Shown: one piece after another, positions 36,691 through 38,651 of the stretch
Numbering within the stretch: position 1 is the first letter of the stretch
Layout: each line of letters begins with the position of its first letter
Source of the DNA: Thalassospira sp. TSL5-1
Lineage (GTDB): Bacteria > Pseudomonadota > Alphaproteobacteria > Rhodospirillales > Thalassospiraceae
Reading direction: 5' to 3'
DNA: 64,000 nucleotides
NCBI RefSeq assembly: GCF_001907695.1
Contig: NZ_KV880638.1
Location: 882-64,881 of the forward strand
Translations under genes and position numbers: made by a program
Notes under the pieces: model-generated
What the model was told of the DNA's origin: nothing
The model's input: the letters and a program-made list of their open reading frames with translations, nothing else
The model's database searches: none

Positions 36691-36944
36691 TATATGGCGG
36701 GGTGTTTCATTTTGTATCACGGCATTTTGTCAGTCGGCATCAGACCCAACAGGCACAGCCATATTGAAAACGCCCGCGACCACGCTCTTCGTTTGGACAA
36801 AATGTTTGTGCCCTCGTATTATGTGAACACTAACGAAAATAGCTAACATTATAAAAATTCTACAAACTATTCCCCGAATCAACATTTACTAACATCACAA
36901 AAAAGTATAACATTTTCTCCTTTCAATAAAATAAAAGAGATAAT
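36691..36944 (+). other. Leader region of the reverse transcriptase gene
   Basis: Base composition falls sharply to AT-rich from about 36790. The motif TAACATT or close variants recurs (near 36841, 36883, 36907). No protein frame is supported. Some defence reverse transcriptases carry a non-coding RNA directly upstream of the gene; this stretch is where one would lie, but I cannot fold one convincingly by eye. Confidence 0.35.
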
Positions 36945-38570
36945 ATGAAAACAAGATTCAGCCTTATTAACACAGGATTATACCCAGAGACCTTACCGCC
37001 TTGTTTTGTATCAAAAGACTCAAAGCGAGCATTCCGAGGAATCATATCAAAATTAGATAAAGAGAAATTCCACGAAAGAAAAACAGATTATATACGCTAT
37101 AGCGCAACTAAACATGACGGTTCACGTCGTTTCTTCGGAACACCTAATATCGTTTCTTACTTTCATATTTCTAGCTTTATATGGAAAAATTGGAAGCTTT
37201 TTGAGAAAAACTTTTCCCTTTCTGGAAATTCTATCGGCGCACCTGAGGTTATGGGGGAGGACGCTGATCGAGCAGTGAAAGTCCCATCTCTTTCCGAGCT
37301 CTCAAAACACGCATCTAAAAATATCAGCTACGCTCCATTTATATTGAAAGCAGATATAGCTCAATGCTTCCCGAGTATATACACTCACTCTATATCCTGG
37401 GCAGCACATGGCATAGAAGAATCTAAAAATGACACACGTAAAGAATCTCAAAAAAATACTTTCAACGCACTGGATTATTTCGTTAGAAATAGTCAACGTG
37501 GAAACACTCGTGGTGTTTTGGTTGGACCAGATGGATACAGACTAATTGCTGAATTTATTCTATCAAAAATAGATCATGAATTACAAAAAATTGTTGGAAA
37601 TTCTATTGTAGGAGCTGTACGTCATGTGGATGACTATTATATAGGTCTTCGAACAGAATATGATGCGCAGGCGGTCCTTTCAAGTTTGAGGGAATTGATT
37701 TCAACATATGAATTAAACTTAAATGATCAAAAGACAAAAATTTATTCAAGCTTAGAACCTATCAATGATCTTTGGGCGCAACGTCTCAGGCAATACATGC
37801 CTACTGATTTTGAAAACAGAGATCATACCTCGATAGAACGGGCAATTTCAGAGGCTACGGACACGGCTCAAAAAATTGGCTCAGACAGTCCAATTAAAAT
37901 ATTATTTCGATCATTCGACAAGGCCAAGATTTATCAATCAGACAACTGGAGTTTTGTAGAACAAAATCTTCAAAGAATAATACAAAAACACCCTCATTCA
38001 ATTGATTACGCTTGTCTACTTCTATGTAAACGCAGCGCCATAGGTTTAGAAATAGATAAACCTGGATGGCTCGCCGTTGCTGAAATAATCATACAAAGAA
38101 GCTTATCACTAAACCATCATCACGAAACAGTTTGGATGACATGGATGCTAATTGCCTGCAAAATTGAAATACCAATACCTATTATTGAAGCTTTATCAAA
38201 ATCAAGAAATGGACACATCCGCGCGTTACTAATACAAGCCTTTGCTGATAATTTAATCAGACGAAAACCAAAACTATCATTAGGAAATAATCTATCTTCC
38301 GAAAATTCCGATTGGCTAGTCAGTCTAGTTGCACGAACGCAAGGATATTCTAAAGCAAAATTTTCCGGAATATATAGTGAAGAATTTAATCACCTAGCCA
38401 ACAAAAGAATAAAACTGATCGATTTCAACGATCACATAGAAAATATAAAAGAAAAAAACAAAAGAGCCATTAGCCGCACCCGCTATGGATACGACGACGA
38501 CGACGACGACGACGACGACGACGATTATGAATTTGACATGGACGAAGATGAAAACGAATTTGACATATAA
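36945..38570 (+). CDS. Antiphage-type reverse transcriptase with helical C-terminal extension
   Basis: 541 residues. RT palm motifs: A, ILKADIAQCFPSIYTHSI (catalytic Asp137); B, GNTRGVLVGPDGYRLIAEFIL (186-206); C, AVRHVDDYYIG (Asp229-Asp230); D, LNLNDQKTKI. The wording FPSIYTHSI and VDDYYIG is that of the Abi/unknown-group (DRT) reverse transcriptases of phage defence, not of group II introns or typical retrons. Residues ~295-500 are helix-rich, resembling the C-terminal alpha-repeat extension of that class. Residues 517-527 are eleven Asp in a row, followed by more acidic residues. The gene is about one third G+C, unlike its neighbours, and stands alone with its own terminator. No second protein gene is present, so it is a single-protein system or uses an RNA partner. 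Subgroup not assigned. Confidence 0.85.
   Translation: MKTRFSLINTGLYPETLPPCFVSKDSKRAFRGIISKLDKEKFHERKTDYIRYSATKHDGSRRFFGTPNIVSYFHISSFIWKNWKLFEKNFSLSGNSIGAPEVMGEDADRAVKVPSLSELSKHASKNISYAPFILKADIAQCFPSIYTHSISWAAHGIEESKNDTRKESQKNTFNALDYFVRNSQRGNTRGVLVGPDGYRLIAEFILSKIDHELQKIVGNSIVGAVRHVDDYYIGLRTEYDAQAVLSSLRELISTYELNLNDQKTKIYSSLEPINDLWAQRLRQYMPTDFENRDHTSIERAISEATDTAQKIGSDSPIKILFRSFDKAKIYQSDNWSFVEQNLQRIIQKHPHSIDYACLLLCKRSAIGLEIDKPGWLAVAEIIIQRSLSLNHHHETVWMTWMLIACKIEIPIPIIEALSKSRNGHIRALLIQAFADNLIRRKPKLSLGNNLSSENSDWLVSLVARTQGYSKAKFSGIYSEEFNHLANKRIKLIDFNDHIENIKEKNKRAISRTRYGYDDDDDDDDDDDYEFDMDEDENEFDI
38493..38525 (+). repeat. Trinucleotide tract (GAC)10-GAT
   Basis: Ten GAC units and one GAT inside the reverse transcriptase gene encode Asp517-527. 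Slippage here would change the length of the acidic tail without shifting frame. Confidence 0.95.
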
Positions 38571-38602
38571 AAATAATCATAAAATATATAATAAATGAAA
38601 AC

Positions 38603-38651
38603 CGAGAAACCACTAAAAAACCCTGCCACATTTCAGTAGCAGGGTTTCTCG
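38603..38651 (+). terminator. Terminator of the reverse transcriptase gene, with alternative pairing
   Basis: AAACCCTGC (38618-38626) pairs with GCAGGGTTT (38639-38647). The right arm continues as CTCG and can also pair with CGAGAAACC at 38603-38611, giving a longer bulged stem or a competing one. Confidence 0.6.

What the first reader, a model, noticed from the sequence alone, without database searches (positions are those of the whole stretch)
36780..38651. Lone low-GC reverse transcriptase island with a helical C-terminal extension and acidic tail
Seen: complete RT motifs (Asp137, Asp229-Asp230), FPSIYTHSI/VDDYYIG wording, ~200 further helix-rich residues, a run of eleven Asp, about one third G+C against GC-rich neighbours, its own terminator, and a decayed LysR gene at the left edge. 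Known: Abi and DRT reverse transcriptases with alpha-repeat C-termini act alone or with an RNA in phage defence. Inference: a horizontally acquired single-gene defence system whose polyaspartate tail is not part of any described subgroup I can recall.
Basis: partly seen in the sequence, partly recalled or inferred. Interest (0 to 1): 0.78.

Follow-up and report, generated by a model that had tools for sequence, protein, structure and literature searches.

The report
A DRT6 phage-defence reverse transcriptase
A marine bacterium has picked up a stand-alone gene of a known anti-virus enzyme family, and comparing its relatives points to a conserved tyrosine in its loose, acid-rich tail as the likely starting point for the DNA it makes.

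Summary

Two things may be new. In the window's clade and its sister clade Tyr516, just before the acidic run, is Tyr in 44 of 44 rows; DRT3b and probably DRT9 prime DNA on C-terminal tail tyrosines, so it is the likely primer. And 56 of 89 tails end in an aromatic residue, some copying the tip of single-strand-binding protein. Both are testable inferences; no function was tested here.

The parts
36945..38570 (+). DRT6 (UG12) reverse transcriptase, 541 aa
37353..37355 (+). Asp137, first catalytic Asp of the RT palm
   Evidence: invariant in 89 of 89 rows
37629..37634 (+). Asp229-Asp230 of the catalytic motif VDDYYIG
   Evidence: D229 invariant, D230 at 90% or more in 89 rows
37770..38450 (+). 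helical (alpha-repeat-like) C-terminal domain, about residues 276-502
   Evidence: secondary structure of the model; model range 1-496 aligned with 9wy8
38466..38495 (+). tail motif AISRTRYGYD, residues 508-517
   Evidence: AIS..[RK]YGYD in 20 of 20 rows of the window's clade
38490..38492 (+). Tyr516, candidate DNA-priming residue (inference)
   Evidence: Tyr in 44 of 44 rows of the two sister clades; not alignable in the other 45 rows
38493..38567 (+). acidic, probably disordered tail with eleven Asp
   Evidence: pLDDT under 50 at 516-518 and 520-541; trinucleotide array 38491-38524
38615..38650 (.). terminator-like hairpin between the RT gene and the converging epimerase gene
   Evidence: scored on the minus strand only
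36762..38721 (.). outer limits of the inserted RT segment relative to genus mates; the right edge lies between 38611 and 38721
   Evidence: G011 matches up to 36761 and again from 38722; G027 up to 36742 and again from 38722; G023 matches again from 38612
36128..36391 (-). LysR-type regulator remnant
   Evidence: LysR_substrate E 1.2e-4, below cut-off; longer ORF at the same place in G027

Best explanation
It is a stand-alone DRT6 (UG12) anti-phage reverse transcriptase, gained by horizontal transfer. By analogy with its relatives DRT6, DRT4, AbiK and DRT3b it most likely forms a hexamer that makes DNA without a nucleic-acid template. I infer that it starts each strand on Tyr516 in its flexible C-terminal tail, so the DNA stays covalently attached to the tail, and that phage infection lets the product accumulate and stop growth. 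The acidic run after Tyr516 most likely keeps the tail soluble and mobile and acts as a nucleic-acid-like or SSB-like docking strip. Shown: family, predicted fold, single-gene organisation, insertion, tail conservation. Inferred: oligomer, template-free synthesis, priming on Tyr516, phage trigger, role of the acidic run.
For: Drt6 profile match over residues 2-525 and top fold match 9wy8. Reviews report DRT6 as a single-gene DRT4 relative activated by the same phage DNA-binding protein, ORF55 (PMC13213688, whole text, PMC13314766, passages). No conserved flanking RNA: 1 of 190 pairs of 400-nt upstream regions and 1 of 190 downstream align, against 176 of 190 for the coding regions. Tyr516 is Tyr in 44 of 44 rows of the two sister clades. 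Position 52, in the region of the fingers loop that primes in AbiK and Abi-P2 (the equivalence is my reading, not a structural superposition), is Phe in 6 of 24 sister-clade rows and Phe or His in 37 of 45 others, which argues against it as the family's primer. C-terminal tail tyrosines prime in DRT3b (Y666, PMC13174585, passages) and probably in DRT9 (Y496/Y498, PMC12483538 and PMC12489045, passages). Seven relatives with little or no acidic tail end in a terminal Tyr, most after a Gly/Ser-rich stretch.
Against: No biochemistry or phage assay. Outside the 44 rows the tail cannot be aligned securely: at the Tyr516 column the other 45 rows read mostly Phe 17, Tyr 12, gap 11, and my clade motifs were written after looking at the tails, with 4 of 11 rows in two small clades not fitting. 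A Tyr somewhere in a long tail is common by chance. Tyr146 is just as invariant (89 of 89) and position 52 is Tyr in 20 of 20 rows of the window's own clade. Residue 516 has pLDDT under 50. A review says that DRT4 has a conserved priming tyrosine but its position was not available to me.
Confidence: 0.6

Rival explanations
1. The priming residue lies elsewhere (for example in the fingers loop as in AbiK) and Tyr516 with the acidic run is a regulatory tail: it mimics DNA, occupies the basic product channel at rest, and is displaced when a phage DNA-binding protein or product DNA binds.
For: Median net charge of the last 30 residues is -10 in 89 rows; tail sequence and length vary while charge mostly persists. 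Position 52 is Tyr in 20 of 20 rows of the window's own clade, so a clade-specific fingers primer is possible. Some tails have grown by repeats (L061).
Against: A charge strip does not need an invariant Tyr516 (44 of 44). At position 52 Phe or His is common in the wider family.
Confidence: 0.25
2. The acidic, aromatic-ended tail is a mimic of the SSB C-terminal tip. It docks DRT6 on SSB partners such as exonuclease I, RecO or the replisome, shielding the new ssDNA from 3' digestion or starving SSB of partners.
For: Terminal Phe in 36 of 89 and Pro-Phe in 14 of 89, against means of 7.1 and 0.43 in 2000 shuffles of the last 12 residues. At least 4 acidic residues in the last 9 plus terminal Phe: 27 of 89 against 0 of 396 flanking ORFs. 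Tips read DDIPF (L080) and DDLPF (L098); the two SSB genes found in the window's genome end in DLDDDIPF. PF tips need at least 11 changes on the tree for 14 rows. Acidic and Phe contacts of the SSB tip with ExoI and RecO: (PMC10143822, passages).
Against: The window's own tail ends in EFDI, not PF, and terminal Phe is found in only 8 of 20 rows of its clade. 33 of 89 tails end in a non-aromatic residue. No binding data.
Confidence: 0.2
3. The poly-Asp run is only a slippage expansion of a trinucleotide repeat with no function.
For: Perfect 11.3-copy array and a 27-bp repeat; no other row of the window's clade has eleven Asp in a row.
Against: 69 of 89 rows have at least 9 Asp/Glu in the last 30 residues with different sequences and lengths, so charge is kept although the exact run is not.
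Confidence: 0.3

Closest known systems
DRT6 / UG12, cryo-EM chain 9wy8
   Different: 23% identity to 9wy8. 9wy8 resembles L071 (Pseudomonas parafulva, 753 bits) with tail motif EEYFDS; the window belongs to a 20-row clade with AISRTRYGYD. The 9wy8 chain in the library has 495 residues numbered 1-495, so its tail seems not to be modelled (inference).
DRT4 / UG15 (9vdo, 9vdv, 9l9s)
   Different: Best Drt4 model 287.2 bits against 493.8 for Drt6; the viral row L101, best matched by a Drt4 model, has no tail
DRT3b / UG8
   Same: Class 1 RT with C-terminal tail and priming Tyr666
   Different: Works with Drt3a and an RNA; protein-templated product; profile E only 3e-33 over residues 132-282
AbiK and Abi-P2
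   Different: Priming Tyr in the fingers loop (Y44, Y61), a region where position 52 is Phe or His in many relatives
DRT9
   Same: Probable priming tyrosines in the C-terminal loop
Bacterial SSB C-terminal tip
   Same: Acidic stretch with terminal aromatic in many relatives
   Different: No homology is claimed; the window's tail lacks the PF end

Membership tests
DRT6 (UG12) | Best match to the DRT6 profile over the full length | tested here: met
   PDLC03748 493.8 bits, residues 2-525, next Drt4 287.2
DRT6 (UG12) | RT palm/fingers plus helical domain as in the solved DRT6 | tested here: met
DRT6 (UG12) | Intact catalytic aspartates | tested here: met
   D137, D229, D230
DRT6 (UG12) | Single-gene system without a neighbouring RNA or partner gene | tested here: met
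   Flanks not conserved, 1 of 190 pairs each side; Rfam scan of 36500-38800: one chance-level hit; of 104 neighbour ORFs at 19 clade loci only the close pair L027/L030 share several, and one L020 neighbour resembles one of theirs
DRT6 (UG12) | Hexamer, DNA synthesis, activation by phage ORF55, phage resistance | not testable with these tools
   ORF55 activation reported for the family in reviews; needs the bench
DRT4 (UG15) | Passes the curated Drt4 model | tested here: not met
   NCBIfam Drt4 193.6 bits, cut-off 450
Group II intron RT | Passes the curated maturase model | tested here: not met
   TIGR04416 39.8 bits, cut-off 300
DGR RT | Closest fold is a DGR RT | tested here: inconclusive
Protein-primed RT (DRT3b/DRT9 type) | Invariant Tyr in a flexible C-terminal tail | tested here: met
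   Tyr516 in 44 of 44 rows of two sister clades; not securely alignable in the other 45
Protein-primed RT (DRT3b/DRT9 type) | Covalent Tyr-DNA adduct | not testable with these tools
   needs the bench
SSB-Ct-like tip | Acidic run ending in Pro-Phe | tested here: not met
   Window tail ends EFDI; 14 of 89 rows end in PF

The most novel reading that the evidence does not exclude
DRT6 enzymes prime DNA on a conserved tail tyrosine that is followed, in many lineages, by an SSB-tip-like acidic strip. The strand's 5' end would therefore be born beside a decoy for SSB partners, which shields the product or jams phage replication.
Probability: 0.15. Interest if true: 0.75.

Novelty: new member of a known kind. 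Interest (0 to 1): 0.45.

Why it matters
The two reviews I saw say that DRT6 product chemistry is less resolved than that of DRT4. The comparison of 89 rows names one residue (Tyr516, or its equivalent in the tail of the solved DRT6) as the likely primer and shows an unexpected excess of SSB-like tips in the family. Both can be tested with single substitutions or tail peptides.

Tried and rejected

Rows dropped before counting: of 90 relatives extracted besides the window copy, L035, L057, L086, L096 and L106 were left out as broken or partial. Viral loci L107-L136 (30 of 40) were not extracted because they match only part of the RT. Of the genome-search loci, L010, L014 and L015 were added; L002, L009, L012 and L013 repeat L037, L041, L023 and L050; L003-L008 and L016 were left out as more distant. 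The tool kept only the best 80 of 235 genome loci. A3, used for the model and the invariant-column list, holds 37 of the 44 rows of the two clades, chosen by me. PADLOC labels were seen one by one for the window and 20 of the 88 relatives: 12 of the 20 best match Drt6 and 8 best match a model named Drt4. L071 is one of these 8 although it scores 753 bits against the solved DRT6, so those labels overlap. All 89 rows match both Drt6 and Drt4 models at 1e-20 or better. The 396 control ORFs are the longest non-overlapping ORFs of 200 aa or more in 120 loci, not annotated genes, and in the viral loci not extracted an RT ORF away from the usual position may be among them.

Full report

THE LOCUS. 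The genus is probably Thalassospira: genus mate G011 has a contig of 86,714 bases, and the record Thalassospira sp. MCCC 1A01428 contig20 has that length and an RT of the same length with the same end. Of 60 genomes searched with the protein (own included), 7 match (own included); among the 28 genus mates 5 match, at 25-36% identity, the best long match 31% (G011). Of 29 genus genomes searched with the 4.9-kb region (own included), the 28 others match the flanks, and no listed match lies inside the RT gene apart from a 33-base match of G020 to the Asp array. In 12 of these 28 both flanks are found on one contig: in 9 they lie under 140 bp apart; in G027 and G011 other genes lie between them, in G027 including a LysR-like ORF (my reading); in G020 about 2.4 kb of other DNA. 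In the other 16 only the right flank was listed, so the site cannot be judged there. None of the RT matches of G011, G020 or G027 lies at this site: G011's are on other contigs, G020 and G027 have none. In G011 the match runs to window 36761 and resumes at 38722; in G023 it resumes at 38612. So the RT segment is an insertion of roughly 1.85-1.96 kb at a variable intergenic site.

FAMILY AND MOBILITY. With an eight-row alignment as query, 235 of 266 genome stretches encode relatives (80 kept) and 40 of 102 viral stretches do. 89 full-length proteins were aligned and a tree was built without the tail columns (quick method, SH-aLRT support only). The window falls in a 20-row clade (support 100) of alphaproteobacteria, cyanobacteria, Bacteroidota and one viral contig, next to a 24-row alphaproteobacterial clade (support 99); the two together have support 98. 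Drt6 is found at E <= 1e-60 in 6 of 385 genomes of the class and 4 of 398 of the phylum, own genome included in both. The gene has lower G+C than its flanks in 18 of the 19 other loci of the clade. A 68%-identical copy, L097, lies between terminase and major head protein genes of a viral contig, on the opposite strand, which makes phage carriage a plausible route. Of ten neighbours that I chose from 104 at clade loci, two match defence models strongly (LmuB E 4.2e-77 beside L034; mad3 E 5.7e-48 beside L026), two weakly and six not.

NO RNA PARTNER. Upstream and downstream 400-nt regions of the 20 clade members show 1 aligned pair of 190 each, the close pair L027/L030, while coding regions show 176 of 190. 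Rfam finds nothing credible. This agrees with Class 1 DRTs working without a nucleic-acid template, as stated in PMC13174585 (passages).

THE TAIL. First, acidic composition: median 14 Asp/Glu in the last 40 residues of 89 rows, against a mean of 4.6 per 40 in the body. The solved DRT6 chain also shows an Asp/Glu run (DDDDDDDDDEDEDEDEDG) near its end; only 495 residues, numbered 1-495, of that chain are in the structure library, so its tail seems not to be modelled. The window's eleven Asp sit on a perfect trinucleotide array that overlaps a 27-bp repeat: the exact run is probably slippage, the charge is not.

Second, Tyr516. In the 37-row alignment A3 it is the only invariant column after Trp457 and one of three invariant tyrosines, with Tyr146 and Tyr355. 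Over all 44 rows of the two clades, of the 14 positions tabulated only Tyr146 (of IYTHS, 89 of 89) and Tyr516 stay Tyr throughout; Tyr355 is Phe in one row. In the 20-row clade AIS..[RK]YGYD occurs in 20 of 20; in the 24-row clade a looser motif A[IL]x(4-10)Y[DEG] occurs in 24 of 24, against 17 of 396 flanking ORFs for the loose motif. The other 45 rows cannot be aligned securely there (Phe 17, Tyr 12, gap 11). Motifs written after inspection hold a tail tyrosine in EEYFDS-type tails in 6 of 6 rows, in a DYG type in 3 of 5, in a YGS type in 4 of 6, and a terminal Tyr in 7 of 7 rows with little acidic tail. These are descriptive, not tests. Precedents for priming on a C-terminal tail tyrosine are DRT3b Tyr666 and, probably, DRT9 Tyr496/Tyr498. 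The fingers-loop alternative of AbiK and Abi-P2 is not kept as Tyr across the family at position 52: 20 of 20, 17 of 24, 7 of 45. One structural hint, weak because these residues have low confidence: the alignment of the model with substrate-bound DRT9 (9vma) ends at model residue 516 against chain residue 495, which, if the numbering is that of the DRT9 papers, is next to its tyrosines.

Third, the tip. Terminal residues are aromatic in 56 of 89 (Phe 36, Tyr 16, Trp 4) against a mean of 12.7 and a maximum of 23 in 2000 shuffles of the last 12 residues; PF in 14 against 0.43 (maximum 3). At least four acidic residues in the last nine with terminal Phe: 27 of 89, none of 396 flanking ORFs. Terminal Phe is found in 20 of 24 rows of the sister clade, 8 of 20 of the window's clade and 8 of 45 others. 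Related rows are not independent: terminal Phe needs at least 17 changes on the tree, PF at least 11. The two SSBs found in the host end in DLDDDIPF. The window's own protein ends EFDI, so it fails the strict SSB tip.

VERDICT. The tail tyrosine and the SSB-like tips are the parts worth bench time. I saw no print on them, but the DRT4 paper and the UG/Abi survey are not held and I did not see the DRT6 structure paper, so novelty of the tyrosine is not established.

Noticed in passing
59524-61645 (+): Low-G+C stretch (0.41-0.43 at 60001-62000) with a DUF4123 protein and a TseH-like type VI secretion effector match, followed by a 157-aa ORF without a significant family; possibly an effector-immunity cargo module.
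   Followed up: partly
54978-55187 (-): Cobalamin riboswitch, 81.4 bits.
   Followed up: no
36128-36720: Remnant of a LysR-type regulator and of other sequence, left by a deletion of about 1.6 kb relative to G027 and G011, with about 10 bp of overlap at the join.
   Followed up: partly
L097:240-9526: DRT6 copy on the opposite strand between terminase and head genes of a viral contig.
   Followed up: yes
L061:3983-5893: DRT6 relative whose tail is extended by a long PEDE-type repeat.
   Followed up: no
L153 (G020), about 2.4 kb between the flanks: A different insert at the same intergenic site in a genus mate; not identified.
   Followed up: no
L034:5904-7982 and L026:7231-8958: Lamassu-like LmuB and MADS-like mad3 matches near DRT6 genes.
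   Followed up: no
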